From: Actinomycetota bacterium
GTDB lineage: Bacteria > Actinomycetota > Geothermincolia > Geothermincolales > RBG-13-55-18
NCBI GenBank assembly: GCA_028697145.1
Contig: JAQVFR010000014.1
Location: 1 to 33,305, forward strand
Direction of reading: 5' to 3'
DNA: 33,305 nucleotides
Shown here: piece after piece, positions 13,624-18,391 of the stretch
Numbering within the stretch: the stretch's first letter is position 1
Layout: the number at the start of each line of letters is the position of its first letter
The notes under the pieces: generated by a model
Seen by the model: only the letters and a program-made list of their open reading frames with translations
Databases searched by the model: none
What the model was told of the DNA's origin: nothing
Position numbers and translations under genes: made by a program

Positions 13624-14184
13624 ATGGATATTCCGGAGGAACTGAGGAAGGCCGCCGCCTTCCACGGCCACCTGTGTCCGGGCCTGACCATAGGTTACCG
13701 GGCGTCCAGGGCGGCCATGGAGCGCATGGGCCTTGCCCGCGCCTACGACGAGGAGCTGGTCTGCGTGGTGGAGAACGATTCCTGCAGCGTGGACGCGGTG
13801 CAGTTCCTCGCCGGCTGCACCTTCGGCAAAGGCAACCTCGTCTTCGAGGACCACGGCAAACAGGTCTTCACCTTCGCCTCGCGGCGGCGGCCGGGAAAGG
13901 CTTTGCGGGTGAGCCTGAAGGCCGGCGCCATACCGCCCCCGGGCGGGGACCTGGACCCGGCCGCGCGCAGGGAGGAAGCTCTGCGCATCTTGATCACGGC
14001 GCCCCTGGAGGACCTTTTCTTCGTGGACGAGATAGACTTCGAGCTACCCGGGCAGGCGCGCATACACCAGTCGGTCCTCTGCGACAACTGCGGCGAGCCG
14101 ACCATGGAGACCAGGATCGTGGAGTCAGGCGGGCGCCGCCTCTGCATCCCCTGCTCTCGGGGCTGGAACCCCCCGCCGAGATAA
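13624..14184 (+). CDS. FmdE-domain protein with C-terminal zinc finger
   Basis: The 186-residue product has the FmdE signature FHGHLCPGLTIGYRA at residues 13-27, with the conserved His and Cys, and the second conserved segment CVVENDSCSVDAVQFLAGCTFGKGNL. The family is named after a subunit associated with molybdenum formylmethanofuran dehydrogenase, but it is widespread in non-methanogens, often near molybdopterin or redox genes, with no settled function. The C-terminus carries a CDNC...CIPC zinc finger (about residues 155-180). This is the usual two-part architecture. It follows the VOC gene closely with the ribosome-binding site GGAGGTTGAG, so both are likely expressed together. Confidence 0.87.
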   Translation: MDIPEELRKAAAFHGHLCPGLTIGYRASRAAMERMGLARAYDEELVCVVENDSCSVDAVQFLAGCTFGKGNLVFEDHGKQVFTFASRRRPGKALRVSLKAGAIPPPGGDLDPAARREEALRILITAPLEDLFFVDEIDFELPGQARIHQSVLCDNCGEPTMETRIVESGGRRLCIPCSRGWNPPPR

Positions 14185-14435: not shown

Positions 14436-15299
14436 CTACGCCAGGATGATGCGGCTGCGCTCACGCCAGTCCTCGTCGAGGGTGCCCTCGAAGACGCGCC
14501 GCGCCGGGCCGCGGGTGACGATGTCGCCGTCCGGCCTCACCTCGACCTCCATCAGCCCACCCGGTTGGCGCACGTGCATCTTCCTCTTGCACCTGTGGGT
14601 GCGCAGGGCGGCGGCCACGGCCGCGCAGGCGCCCGTGGCGCTGGCCATGGTCTCCCCGGCGCCCCTCTCCCAGGAGCGCAGGCGCATCTCCGAGACGTCG
14701 ATAACCTGCGCGAACTCGACGTTCACGCGCAGGGGGAAGAGGGGGTGGTTCTCGATAGCGGGGCCCAGCTCGCTTACCAGCGCATCATCGATATCCTCCA
14801 GGAAGAGGACACAGTGGGGATTGCCGACCGCAAGGCAGGTGGCGCTTACCGTCCTCCCCGCCGCCGCGATGGGGACGTCCACGGCCTCCTCTTCCCCGCC
14901 CCGCATGGGGATGGACGAACAGCGGAAATCCGGGCTGCCCATGTGCACCTCCACCGAGCTCACCTTGCCCATGGTGGTCTGGACGTTCAGCCTCTTGATC
15001 CCCGAAGGGGTGTCCACCAGCATCTCTTCACGCGGGTGGATGCCCATCTCGTAAAGGTGCTTGGCCAGGCAGCGCAGGCCGTTTCCGCTCACGTCGGCCT
15101 GGCTGGCATCGGGATTGTAGTTGACCATGCGGCAGACGGCCCGGTCGGAGGGCTCCATGACGATGATGCCGTCCCCGCCGATGCCCAGGTGGCGGTGGCA
15201 CAGCATCTGGATGTCCGCCGGCGCGAGCTTGAGCGGCGCCTCCAGCGCGTCGAGCAGGATGTAGTCGTTTCCGAGGCTGTGGTACTTGAAGAACCGCAT
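14436..15299 (-). CDS. dapF: Diaminopimelate epimerase homologue with both catalytic Cys replaced by Ser
   Basis: The 287-residue product is a full-length DapF-fold protein: FFKYHSLGNDYILLD at the start, then GNGLR, TPSGIKRL, VGNPHCVLF and ERGAGETMA...TGACAA. DapF interconverts LL- and meso-diaminopimelate for lysine and peptidoglycan with two opposed cysteines. Here the first (normally the Cys of CGNG) is Ser71 in DVSGNG, and the second (normally the Cys of ACGTGAC) is Ser220 in MASATGAC; both codons read AGC on the coding strand. The DGS of the first site is also DAS. The substrate-binding ERG and GNG remain. Either the enzyme is altered or inactive, or it acts on another substrate. ATG 15299 follows GCGGAGG. 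Confidence 0.88.
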   Translation of the reverse strand: MRFFKYHSLGNDYILLDALEAPLKLAPADIQMLCHRHLGIGGDGIIVMEPSDRAVCRMVNYNPDASQADVSGNGLRCLAKHLYEMGIHPREEMLVDTPSGIKRLNVQTTMGKVSSVEVHMGSPDFRCSSIPMRGGEEEAVDVPIAAAGRTVSATCLAVGNPHCVLFLEDIDDALVSELGPAIENHPLFPLRVNVEFAQVIDVSEMRLRSWERGAGETMASATGACAAVAAALRTHRCKRKMHVRQPGGLMEVEVRPDGDIVTRGPARRVFEGTLDEDWRERSRIILA

Positions 15300-15398: not shown

Positions 15399-15815
15399 GT
15401 GACGATTGGCACCGCGAGAGATGGGACGGCCTTGCTGCAAATGGATGAAGACCGCAGAGACTGGCTGGATCAGGCCGGTTATACCCTGCTGACGGCCGAG
15501 GGCCTGCTGTCAGGCGGGCTTTCCGGGGAGGCGATATCCAGCGCCTTTCTCGCCATGATCTACGCGGCGAGGGCGGCCCTGGAAGGGCAAGGAGACGACC
15601 TTTCCGGATGGCAGGACGTGGCGGCGCGTTTTCAATCGGATGCCTTGCCCGCCCTGGGGCTGAGCAAGGAGAACCAACGAGCGCTGCCCATTGTCGCCGA
15701 CCTCTACCGGCGTATCGGCGGCGGAGAGATGGAGGCCGACCCCGTAACGGCCGCTGCGTGCCTCGAGGATGCCCGGTCGTTCCTGGGCGAGGTGGAAAAG
15801 AAGCTGCGGGGCTAG
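15399..15815 (+). CDS. HEPN-like small protein
   Basis: The product (138 residues from GTG 15399, or 124 from ATG 15441) is helical with the pattern of a HEPN domain: DWLDQAGYTLLTAEGLLSGGLSGEAISSAFLAMIYAARAALE, then a loop, then LPIVADLYRRIGGGEMEADPVTAAACLEDARSFLGEVEKKL. HEPN domains occur in nucleotide-binding and RNase modules of toxin-antitoxin and defence systems, but the Rx4-6H RNase motif is not seen, and no nucleotidyltransferase (MNT) partner is adjacent. It stands alone, divergent from dapF. The start is uncertain because none of the candidates has a good ribosome-binding site and the promoter lies very close. Confidence 0.65.
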   Translation: MTIGTARDGTALLQMDEDRRDWLDQAGYTLLTAEGLLSGGLSGEAISSAFLAMIYAARAALEGQGDDLSGWQDVAARFQSDALPALGLSKENQRALPIVADLYRRIGGGEMEADPVTAAACLEDARSFLGEVEKKLRG

Positions 15816-15843: not shown

Positions 15844-16572
15844 TCATCCCGTGCGCTGCTGCCAGATCTCGAGGAAACGCTGGGAATCCTCCCACATGTA
15901 GACGTTGTTGAAGAGCACGTAGGCTTTCCTTTTCTTGCTCTTGCGCAAGATGGTTACCAGTTTACCCAGCTCCTTGTCGGTATAGCGGTGGCGGAAATTG
16001 CCGACCCCGTGCAGGCGCCAGTAGATGACGGAGCCCGCCTTCTCCCTGCCCTGGAAGGGGTCGACGACGTGCAGGAGGTCGAGCTCGCGGCACAGCTTTC
16101 CCGCCTCGTCCAGGCTCCATTGCCCCCGCGGCTCCCAGGCCATCTGCAGGCCGTCCCGCTCGATGGTCGAGAAGAACTCGCGCATCTGGGCGATGTTCTT
16201 CGGCCCCGGCCCGAAACTCGGCTGGGACTGGAAGACGACTATCTCGGCCTCCAGGGCCCTCGCCACCTCGAGGGTCTCCTTCCAGGCTTTGAAGTTCTCC
16301 GGGGTGGGTTTGAAGGAGCCGTAAGCATCCCGCAGCTCATCCGGGATGGGATGCGAGAGCCGGCTGTAGGTGGGGCTGGAGGGAAGGTGGGTCATGAGCT
16401 GCCAGGCCTTGAGGGTGAACTCGAAATGAGCGGGGGCTTCCTGGCGCCACTTCAGGGACGTCTTTACCCTGGGCAGCTGGTAAAACGTCCGTTGTATCTC
16501 CACCAGGGGTAGGGTCCTATAATAGATCTGCCGTGCCTGGGGGAAACCGCAACAACCTACCTTGAGCTCCAA
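15844..16572 (-). CDS. DUF72 family protein
   Basis: The 242-residue product matches DUF72 (YecE-like), a TIM-barrel family of unknown function: VGCCGFP at the N-terminus (normally IGTSGW), EIQRTFYQLP, FTLKAWQLMTH, VVFQSQPSFGPGPKN, MAWEPRGQW, YWRLHGVG, and the C-terminal YVLFNNVYMWEDSQRF (family FNN segment). No enzymatic activity is established for the family. The TTG start at 16572 follows TGAGGTG. The gene is transcribed leftward, downstream of the radical SAM gene but separated from it by 185 bases. Confidence 0.83.
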   Translation of the reverse strand: MELKVGCCGFPQARQIYYRTLPLVEIQRTFYQLPRVKTSLKWRQEAPAHFEFTLKAWQLMTHLPSSPTYSRLSHPIPDELRDAYGSFKPTPENFKAWKETLEVARALEAEIVVFQSQPSFGPGPKNIAQMREFFSTIERDGLQMAWEPRGQWSLDEAGKLCRELDLLHVVDPFQGREKAGSVIYWRLHGVGNFRHRYTDKELGKLVTILRKSKKRKAYVLFNNVYMWEDSQRFLEIWQQRTG

Positions 16573-16757: not shown

Positions 16758-18194
16758 TCAGGCGTCGTTTTCGAGGCCGCCCAGGCGTCGGGGGGGGACC
16801 TTCGCCCGTACCCGGCCCCACCGCTGTTTCAAGTCTTTGAGGAAGTCCTTGTTGCGGGAGCGGAAGCGGTGGATGGCATGGTGCGCATAGGCGTAGGTGA
16901 ACATGTTCCACCAGCGAAAACGCATGCCCTGCATCCAGCACCGCCACAGGGAGTAGAACCGCCGCATTGAACGTATCGACCCCTCTTTCTGGAGCTGGTA
17001 GGGGGTCATTTGCAGGGGGTCGAAGACCACGTGGTGACCGCTGTACTTGGACCAGTCCTCGAGCAGGATGCGATCCTGCGCGGCGAGCTCCTCGTAGGTC
17101 TCGGTGCCGGGGAAGGGCGTGAGCACCATGAACTGCACGGTGTCTATCCTGAAGCTCCGCGCGAACCGCACCGTATCCTTGATGGTATTCACGTCATCCT
17201 CGTCCGAACCCAGCACGAACATGCCGTGCACCTTGATGCCGTACTTGTGCAGGATCTTTACCGCATCGGCGATGTCCTGCACCGTCTGTTCCTTGCGGTA
17301 GCTCTCCAGGGTGCGGGGATTTATGGATTCCAGCCCCAGGTAGAGGAACATGCATCCGCTGTCGCGCATGAGGTCCAGCATCTCCTCGTCCCTGACCACG
17401 TCCACCCGGGCCTGTGCCGTCCAGCGTATCTTGAGGTCCCTGTCGATGATGCCACGCAGCAGATCCTTCGTCCTCCTGGGATTGGCGGTGAAGTTGTCGT
17501 CGTAAAAAAAGATGGAATGGCGGGAGCGCTTATGCAGCACCTCGAGTTCATCCAGTACATCGGCGGTATCGCGGAAGCGGTAGCGGCGCCCGAACATCTT
17601 GGTGACAGAGCAGAACTTGCAGTTATAAGGGCAGCCCCGGCTGGTCAGGACCGGTACGACACGGATCTTCTCGTGGTTCCTGATCAGGGTGAGGTCCGGC
17701 CAGGGCAGGTCGTCCAGGTGCTGCACTCTCGGAGTGGAGGGGTTGTGGACGAACCCGTCTCCGCTGGGGTAGGAGAGGCCGGGAATGGACGCGAAGTCGT
17801 CGTCCCCCGCCCTTATGCGTTTGACCAGCTCGATGAAGGCGAACTCGCTCTCCCCGCGCATGACGAAATCCGCGCCCCTCTCCAGAGCCTCCTCCGGGAG
17901 GAAGGTCACGTGCGGCCCGCCCATGACCACGGGGATGTCGCCCGCCTGCTTCACGCGCTCGAGGATGGCGTAGGCCTCGAGGGCGGTGGTGGTGATGGTG
18001 GATATCCCGACCAGGTCGGAGGAGGCCACGTCTTTCCAGTCCAATCCGCCTAACTCCTGGAAGTATATGGTTGGCCTGATCCCGAGGTCGCGTTGCAGCA
18101 TCGCCCCCAGCAGGGGAAGGCCGAGGCGCGGCAGCTTGAACTTGGAATACACGTGGATCCCGGGCGCTTTAGGTTCGATCAAGGTCACTTTCAA
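16758..18194 (-). CDS. B12-binding-type radical SAM protein
   Basis: The 478-residue product has an N-terminal cobalamin-binding-like Rossmann domain (about 1-150; VVMGGPHVTFLPEEAL, VMRGESEFAF) and a radical SAM domain with the [4Fe-4S] motif CPYNCKFC (Cys188, 192, 195). FYDDNFTANPRRTKDLL, the YLGLES segment and the GTETYEEL region follow in normal order. Such proteins, related to MiaB/BchE/HpnP-type enzymes, cleave S-adenosylmethionine to drive methylations, cyclisations or lipid modification. The B12 domain lacks the classic DxHxxG base-off motif, as is usual in this class. The TTG start at 18194 is seven bases after GGAGGGG. It diverges from a response regulator across tandem repeats. Confidence 0.88.
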   Translation of the reverse strand: MKVTLIEPKAPGIHVYSKFKLPRLGLPLLGAMLQRDLGIRPTIYFQELGGLDWKDVASSDLVGISTITTTALEAYAILERVKQAGDIPVVMGGPHVTFLPEEALERGADFVMRGESEFAFIELVKRIRAGDDDFASIPGLSYPSGDGFVHNPSTPRVQHLDDLPWPDLTLIRNHEKIRVVPVLTSRGCPYNCKFCSVTKMFGRRYRFRDTADVLDELEVLHKRSRHSIFFYDDNFTANPRRTKDLLRGIIDRDLKIRWTAQARVDVVRDEEMLDLMRDSGCMFLYLGLESINPRTLESYRKEQTVQDIADAVKILHKYGIKVHGMFVLGSDEDDVNTIKDTVRFARSFRIDTVQFMVLTPFPGTETYEELAAQDRILLEDWSKYSGHHVVFDPLQMTPYQLQKEGSIRSMRRFYSLWRCWMQGMRFRWWNMFTYAYAHHAIHRFRSRNKDFLKDLKQRWGRVRAKVPPRRLGGLENDA

Positions 18195-18239: not shown

Positions 18240-18391
18240 ATTACATTATGCCCAGGCATGGCAGCTGTTAAAACATCCGTACGGCGCAAAGGTTACGGAC
18301 GGTTGCCGGTCGGATTTATTACATTATGCCCAGGCATGGCAGCTGTTAAAACATCCGTACGGCGCAAAGGTTACGGACGGGTGCCGGTCGG
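18240..18391. repeat. Two-copy tandem repeat, period 78 bp
   Basis: A 74-base unit (18240-18313) is repeated at 18318-18391 with one mismatch (T against G at the 62nd base) and a four-base variable spacer. Each unit holds ATGCC-CA-GGCAT, the palindrome CCGTACGG, and TCCGTA...TACGGA with a 12-base loop. It fills most of the divergent gap between the radical SAM and response-regulator genes and ends against the predicted -35 position of the latter. Confidence 0.9.

What the first reader, a model, noticed from the sequence alone, without database searches (positions are those of the whole stretch)
14436..15299. DapF homologue with serine at both catalytic cysteine positions
Ser71 (DVSGNG) and Ser220 (MASATGAC) occupy the two positions that carry the acid/base cysteines in diaminopimelate epimerase; both are AGC codons in clean sequence. 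Substrate-binding GNG, GNPH and ERG motifs are intact. From enzymology, Cys-to-Ser changes in DapF abolish or greatly reduce epimerisation, and single Cys-to-Thr/Ser changes in the related proline racemase family go with dehydratases. A two-Ser enzyme may therefore do another reaction, or this lineage may make meso-DAP by another route and have a repurposed DapF.
Basis: partly seen in the sequence, partly recalled or inferred. Interest (0 to 1): 0.78.

Follow-up and report, generated by a model that had tools for sequence, protein, structure and literature searches.

The report
DapF-like epimerase with two catalytic serines
This is a real, strongly conserved second copy of a cell-wall and lysine-pathway enzyme in which both catalytic cysteines are serines, and related bacteria that rely on a serine/serine version alone suggest that the cysteine pair, thought to be essential, may be replaceable in nature.

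Summary
Window 14436-15299 (-) encodes an intact 287-aa DapF-family protein with Ser71 and Ser220 (both AGC) at the two catalytic Cys positions. It is not a sequencing error: 12 of 12 orthologues in the order are Ser/Ser (61-83% identical), including all 11 family genomes that are at least 90% complete. They are under purifying selection and are better conserved than the genome's second, canonical Cys/Cys DapF, which sits next to dapL. No ddh was found.

Ser at one catalytic position recurs across Actinomycetota (for example, Rubrobacter is Cys/Ser). An entire order, identified through Conexibacter woesei (Solirubrobacterales, meso-DAP wall), has a Ser/Ser protein as its essentially only DapF; ddh is found in 3 of 121 genomes and lysA in 114 of 121. 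So a Ser/Ser DapF probably works in vivo there.

The window clade also changes carboxylate-contacting residues (Gly218 to Ala in all, Asn157 to Thr/Ser in most). I favour a Ser/Ser proton-transfer enzyme acting on DAP or a DAP-like amino acid. A different reaction, or a non-catalytic paralogue, remains possible. I found no report of it in the searches made. It is directly testable in a cultivated species.

The parts
14436..15299 (-). dapF2: Ser/Ser DapF-family protein, 287 aa, including stop
15087..15089 (-). Ser71 codon AGC, at the position of catalytic Cys73 (E. coli/H. influenzae numbering)
14640..14642 (-). Ser220 codon AGC, at the position of catalytic Cys217
14637..14639 (-). Ala221 (GCC) replacing Gly218, whose position contacts the reactive carboxylate in H. 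influenzae DapF; Ala in 12/12 orthologues
14820..14822 (-). Asn160 of GNPH (= Asn157); Asn here, but Thr or Ser in 9 of 12 orthologues
14439..14474 (-). C-terminal tail 276-287 (EDWRERSRIILA), predicted helix 276-286, with group-specific invariant residues D277, E280, R283
15399..15815 (+). HEPN-domain gene between dapF2 and the DUF72 gene; in 10 of 12 loci; contains no histidine, so no Rx4-6H RNase motif
15844..16572 (-). DUF72 protein; next to dapF2 in 12 of 12 loci (same strand, adjacent without HEPN in L063)
16758..18194 (-). B12-binding radical SAM protein, syntenic in 10 of 12 loci
13624..14184 (+). FmdE-domain protein with dksA/traR zinc finger, downstream neighbour in 8 of 12 loci

Best explanation
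dapF2 encodes a folded DapF-type enzyme that binds DAP or a close DAP-like diamino acid and moves its alpha proton (1,1-proton transfer, i.e. epimerisation or racemisation) with a Ser71/Ser220 pair sitting at the helix N-termini where DapF has Cys73/Cys217. It runs alongside the housekeeping Cys/Cys DapF that works with DapL. Shown: intact gene, conserved Ser/Ser, purifying selection, retained pocket, high-confidence DapF fold, second canonical copy. Inferred: that it is catalytic, the substrate, and the proton-transfer role of the serines. A possible benefit, untested: a Ser pair cannot form the inactivating disulfide described for the Cys pair.
For: Ser (never Ala or Gly) at both positions in 12/12 orthologues; 14 of 16 pocket positions invariant against 119 of 287 overall; N11, N64, G74, N75, N190, E208 and R209 all kept (residue roles in PMC8225329). 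dN/dS about 0.09-0.20. Better conserved than canonical DapF in 45 of 45 genome pairs, 71% against 62%. AF2 pLDDT 93.5; closest PDB match is a ligand-bound cyanobacterial DapF, 9mro, TM 0.90. Independent precedent: the order that includes Conexibacter woesei has a Ser/Ser DapF (31 of 31 sequences read, plus 8), one copy per genome, ddh in 3 of 121, lysA in 114 of 121, and meso-DAP walls (PMC3035278; PMC10722151). The Cys/Ser form occurs in Rubrobacter, and the Ser/Cys form in the dapL-linked dapF of G003. Natural Ser/Cys 4-hydroxyproline epimerase: PMC4113996.
Against: Engineered Cys-to-Ser enzymes keep under 0.1% activity or little (PMC8225329, PMC11602996). The window clade, unlike the Solirubrobacterales proteins, also loses Gly218 and mostly Asn157, which contact substrate carboxylates. 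A canonical DapF already does the pathway job in these genomes. No operon links dapF2 to DAP metabolism. No activity of any Ser/Ser DapF has been measured as far as I could find.
Confidence: 0.45

Rival explanations
1. Non-catalytic paralogue: it has lost epimerase activity and is kept for binding (a DAP sensor, a partner of the canonical DapF, or a protein-binding regulator like E. coli DapF acting on RppH).
For: Both thiols are gone and two carboxylate-contacting positions are altered; a canonical copy is always present; it is more constrained than the enzyme copy. E. coli DapF with both Cys changed to Ala still binds and stimulates RppH (PMC4227774).
Against: Dead enzymes usually lose pocket residues, but here 14 of 16 pocket positions are invariant and both catalytic positions are always Ser. 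Ser/Ser occurs as the sole DapF elsewhere. No partner gene was identified; RppH was not searched for.
Confidence: 0.27
2. Repurposed enzyme: the Ser pair deprotonates a different substrate, giving beta-elimination/dehydration or racemisation of another amino acid.
For: Asn157, which binds the distal carboxylate, is Thr/Ser in 9 of 12 and Gly218 is Ala in 12 of 12. A Ser/Thr member of the proline racemase superfamily is a dehydratase (PMC4113996). DapF relatives act on other amino acids: PddB on Dab, HisR on His, the latter with a Cys-Ala-Ser-Gly motif that also has Ala after the Cys.
Against: The distal-end residues N64, N190, E208 and R209 are invariant, unlike in PddB. Neighbours (DUF72, HEPN, radical SAM) do not point to a pathway.
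Confidence: 0.26
3. Artefact or decaying gene: sequencing error, or a pseudogene drifting after duplication.
For: None found.
Against: 12 independent assemblies agree at both positions; dN/dS is about 0.09-0.20; the reading frames are open.
Confidence: 0.02

Closest known systems
Diaminopimelate epimerase DapF (TIGR00652/PF01678; H. influenzae 1BWZ/2GKE, E. coli 4IJZ, cyanobacterial 9MRO)
   Same: Fold (TM 0.90 to 9mro), length, substrate-amine and distal-group residues N11, N64, N190, E208, R209, GNG loop
   Different: Ser instead of both catalytic Cys; Ala instead of Gly218; Asn157 variable within the clade; paralogue beside a canonical copy
Ser/Ser DapF of the order of G172 (includes the genome identified as Conexibacter woesei, Solirubrobacterales)
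   Same: Ser at both catalytic positions, otherwise DapF-like pocket
   Different: Sole DapF of the genome, keeps Gly218 and Asn157, has GNPQ instead of GNPH; only about 33-35% identical; common origin neither shown nor rejected (AU p 0.486)
Proline racemase superfamily Ser/Cys 4-hydroxyproline epimerase and Ser/Thr trans-3-hydroxyproline dehydratase (PMC4113996)
   Same: Natural replacement of catalytic Cys by Ser in the same fold class
   Different: Different superfamily branch and substrates; only one position is Ser there
PddB (Dab racemase), HisR and CntK (His racemases), O-ureidoserine racemase (7VDY)
   Same: DapF-fold racemases with altered substrates; HisR has Ala after the second Cys
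   Different: PddB and HisR use two Cys; PddB lacks the distal-carboxylate residues that this protein keeps

Membership tests
DapF sequence family (PF01678/TIGR00652) | Scores above the curated cut-offs over the whole protein | tested here: met
   180.5 bits (cut-off 34.7) and 245.7 bits (cut-off 114.65)
DapF sequence family (PF01678/TIGR00652) | DapF two-domain fold | tested here: met
   AF2 pLDDT 93.5; best PDB match 9mro_A TM 0.90/0.93
DAP epimerase (thiolate-thiol enzyme) | Two catalytic cysteines (Cys73, Cys217) | tested here: not met
   Ser/Ser in 12/12 orthologues
DAP epimerase (thiolate-thiol enzyme) | PROSITE-type signature N-x-(DN)-(GS)-...-C-(GI)-N-(GA)-x-R (as quoted in PMC8225329) | tested here: not met
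   Window reads N-P-D-A-S-Q-A-D-V-S-G-N-G-L-R: Ala for G/S and Ser for Cys
DAP epimerase (thiolate-thiol enzyme) | DAP-contacting residues N11, N64, N157, N190, E208, R209, G74, N75, G218, S219 | tested here: inconclusive
   7 kept in 12/12; N157 kept in 3/12; G218 changed to Ala in 12/12; S219 is Ala or Thr (roles)
DAP epimerase (thiolate-thiol enzyme) | Epimerises LL-DAP to meso-DAP | not testable with these tools
   Needs an enzyme assay
Proline racemase superfamily dehydratase/epimerase with catalytic Ser | Sequence match to that family | tested here: not met
   Only PF01678 matched; proline racemase structures are distant fold matches, TM about 0.6-0.7

The most novel reading that the evidence does not exclude
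DapF does not need cysteines in nature: Ser/Ser DapF is the working meso-DAP epimerase of a whole bacterial order with meso-DAP walls, and the window clade keeps a second Ser/Ser form beside a Cys/Cys one. This would be a hydroxyl-hydroxyl two-base alpha-epimerase, against the view that a thiolate-thiol pair is required.
Probability: 0.5. Interest if true: 0.8.

Novelty: new variant of a known kind. Interest (0 to 1): 0.62.

Why it matters
Two-base cofactor-independent racemases are explained by the special acidity and desolvation of thiols; Ser mutants are used as dead controls and to aid crystallisation. If Ser/Ser DapFs work, the mechanism and the Cys-directed inhibitor strategy need revision, automatic annotation by the Cys signature misses real enzymes, and cultivated organisms (Conexibacter, Rubrobacter) let the question be tested at once. 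If they do not work, a meso-DAP-walled order lacks any known DAP epimerase, which is equally notable.

Tried and rejected
Sequencing error or pseudogene: rejected (12 independent orthologues, purifying selection). DapF2 as a recent copy of the genome's own DapF: rejected; the canonical copies of the order form their own starred clade. One shared origin of the two Ser/Ser groups: not rejected (AU p 0.486) but not supported, with long branches. Alternative meso-DAP route (ddh): none in the 16 genomes tested. Gene neighbourhood as a functional clue: DUF72 and HEPN are constant neighbours but uninformative; a paper search for DUF72 gave nothing useful. Rfam: no RNA family in the window. Genome-wide scan of GTDB contigs found only 3 close relatives. 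Paper searches for natural Ser DapF or for Solirubrobacterales DapF found no report.

Full report
OBSERVATION. The ORF at 14436-15299 (-) is intact and encodes a 287-aa protein that passes the Pfam and NCBIfam DapF cut-offs. Aligned with E. coli DapF, Ser71 and Ser220 fall exactly on Cys73 and Cys217; both codons are AGC. It missed that the residue after the second Ser is Ala (Gly218 in all Cys/Cys proteins compared) and that the Asn of GNPH, present here, is Thr or Ser in 9 of 12 orthologues.

GENOME. The window lies in a 2.98-Mb, 97.6% complete Actinomycetota assembly. Named relatives are Candidatus Solincola tengchongensis and Candidatus Geothermincola primus. The genome has a second DapF, Cys/Cys (EMCGNG...ACGTG), at G000:C38:37928-38782, between miaA and an LL-DAP aminotransferase that passes the dapL models. 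lysA is present and ddh is absent (the control found it in C. glutamicum). So ordinary meso-DAP synthesis is covered by DapL plus the canonical DapF.

CONSERVATION. Orthologues occur in all 11 family genomes that are at least 90% complete and in one genome of a sister family (G016), but not in G015 or the rest of the class; identity is 61-83%, against at most 46% for other DapFs. Both serines and Ala221 are invariant in 12 of 12. Of 16 pocket positions 14 are invariant, against 119 of 287 overall. N11, N64, G74, N75, N190, E208 and R209, whose roles in H. influenzae DapF are given in PMC8225329, are kept. NG86 dN/dS for close pairs is about 0.09-0.20. In 45 of 45 family genome pairs the Ser/Ser copy is more similar than the canonical copy (means 71.1% and 62.5%). 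This is not a decaying duplicate.

ORIGIN. The Ser/Ser clade is monophyletic (100/100) and lies outside the clade of the order's canonical copies, so it is an old paralogue, not a recent copy of the local gene.

STRUCTURE. AlphaFold2 gives mean pLDDT 93.5. The nearest solved structure is a cyanobacterial DapF solved with aziDAP or alpha-methyl DAP (9mro, TM 0.90), ahead of other DapFs, O-ureidoserine racemase and, far behind, PhzF and proline racemases. The helices after both Ser-containing loops are predicted as in DapF.

NEIGHBOURHOOD. A DUF72 gene lies next to dapF2 in 12 of 12 loci, a HEPN gene in 10, a B12 radical SAM gene in 10. In L063 the DUF72 gene and dapF2 are adjacent on one strand. 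None of these names a pathway.

SER AT DAPF CATALYTIC POSITIONS IS NOT UNIQUE. Pattern scans of 396 Actinomycetota genomes found Ser in the second catalytic motif in 19 (AGY) and 58 (TCN) genomes (the reversed-pattern control matched once in each scan). Sequences read show Cys/Ser DapFs in families f18, f31, f40 and f47. f18 includes contigs of exactly 3,225,748 and 3,022,875 bp, the published sizes of Rubrobacter xylanophilus DSM 9941 and AA3-22 (PMC6706694). Ser/Cys DapFs are the only copy in three f29 genomes and the dapL-linked copy in G003.

A SER/SER ORDER. In the order of G172, 119 of 121 genomes have a match, nearly always one. All 31 sequences read and the 8 are Ser/Ser, with GNPQ for GNPH. 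G470 is one contig of 6,359,369 bp, the published size of Conexibacter woesei (PMC3035278). Its only PF01678 gene is the Ser/Ser one. ddh is found in 3 of 121 genomes and lysA in 114. PMC3035278 states that meso-DAP is the diagnostic wall diamino acid of all Solirubrobacterales and of C. woesei itself; PMC10722151 reports meso-DAP in Solirubrobacter. Unless an unknown epimerase exists, the Ser/Ser protein makes this meso-DAP.

MECHANISM. Studied enzymes lose activity on Cys-to-Ser change: PddB under 0.1%, HisR greatly reduced (PMC8225329, PMC11602996), explained by thiol acidity and desolvation (PMC8142540). Yet natural Ser/Cys 4-hydroxyproline epimerases and Ser/Thr dehydratases exist in the proline racemase superfamily (PMC4113996), so context can activate a Ser. 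For the window protein I favour Ser-based alpha-proton transfer on DAP or a DAP-like substrate (0.45), over a non-catalytic binding role (0.27; DapF with both Cys changed to Ala still activates RppH, PMC4227774) and a different reaction or substrate (0.26; motivated by Ala221 and Thr/Ser160). The Gly-to-Ala change is not fatal in principle: HisR, an active racemase, has Cys-Ala-Ser-Gly, as read from its mutagenesis primer. One possible advantage of Ser/Ser: C. glutamicum DapF is inactivated by a disulfide between the two Cys (PMC5296763), which serines cannot form; this is inference only.

VERDICT. But Ser/Ser does not by itself argue against epimerase activity. The stronger and testable finding is that natural Ser/Ser and Cys/Ser DapFs are common in Actinomycetota and, for Ser/Ser, are the only DapF in an order that contains meso-DAP.

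Noticed in passing
L130 (G470, contig length equal to Conexibacter woesei), L096, L100-L129, L131-L137: Whole order (G172 and relatives) has Ser/Ser DapF with GNPQ instead of GNPH, nearly always as the only DapF, despite meso-DAP walls in the order.
   Followed up: yes
L139-L167, L091-L094, L168-L169: Cys/Ser DapF as the typical form in several Actinomycetota families, including contigs whose lengths equal Rubrobacter xylanophilus DSM 9941 and AA3-22.
   Followed up: partly
L021, L022, L023, L098, L099 (G085, G195, G062): Ser/Cys DapF as sole copy in three small genomes (1.0-1.4 Mb) without lysA; dapL found in two of them.
   Followed up: partly
L045 (G003:C63:31970-32788): In G003 the dapL-linked DapF is itself Ser/Cys, with a TCA codon, beside its Ser/Ser paralogue, so this genome has no Cys/Cys DapF.
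   Followed up: partly
window 18240-18391: Near-perfect tandem duplication of 74 nt (99% identical, spacing 78) upstream of a response-regulator-like ORF; no Rfam match even at a loose threshold.
   Followed up: partly
window 15399-15815: HEPN-domain protein without any histidine, inserted between dapF2 and the DUF72 gene in most loci; function unclear.
   Followed up: no
L147 (G392, family f47): A Cys/Ser DapF with Ser-Ala-Thr-Gly, the same Gly218-to-Ala change as the window clade, in another family.
   Followed up: no
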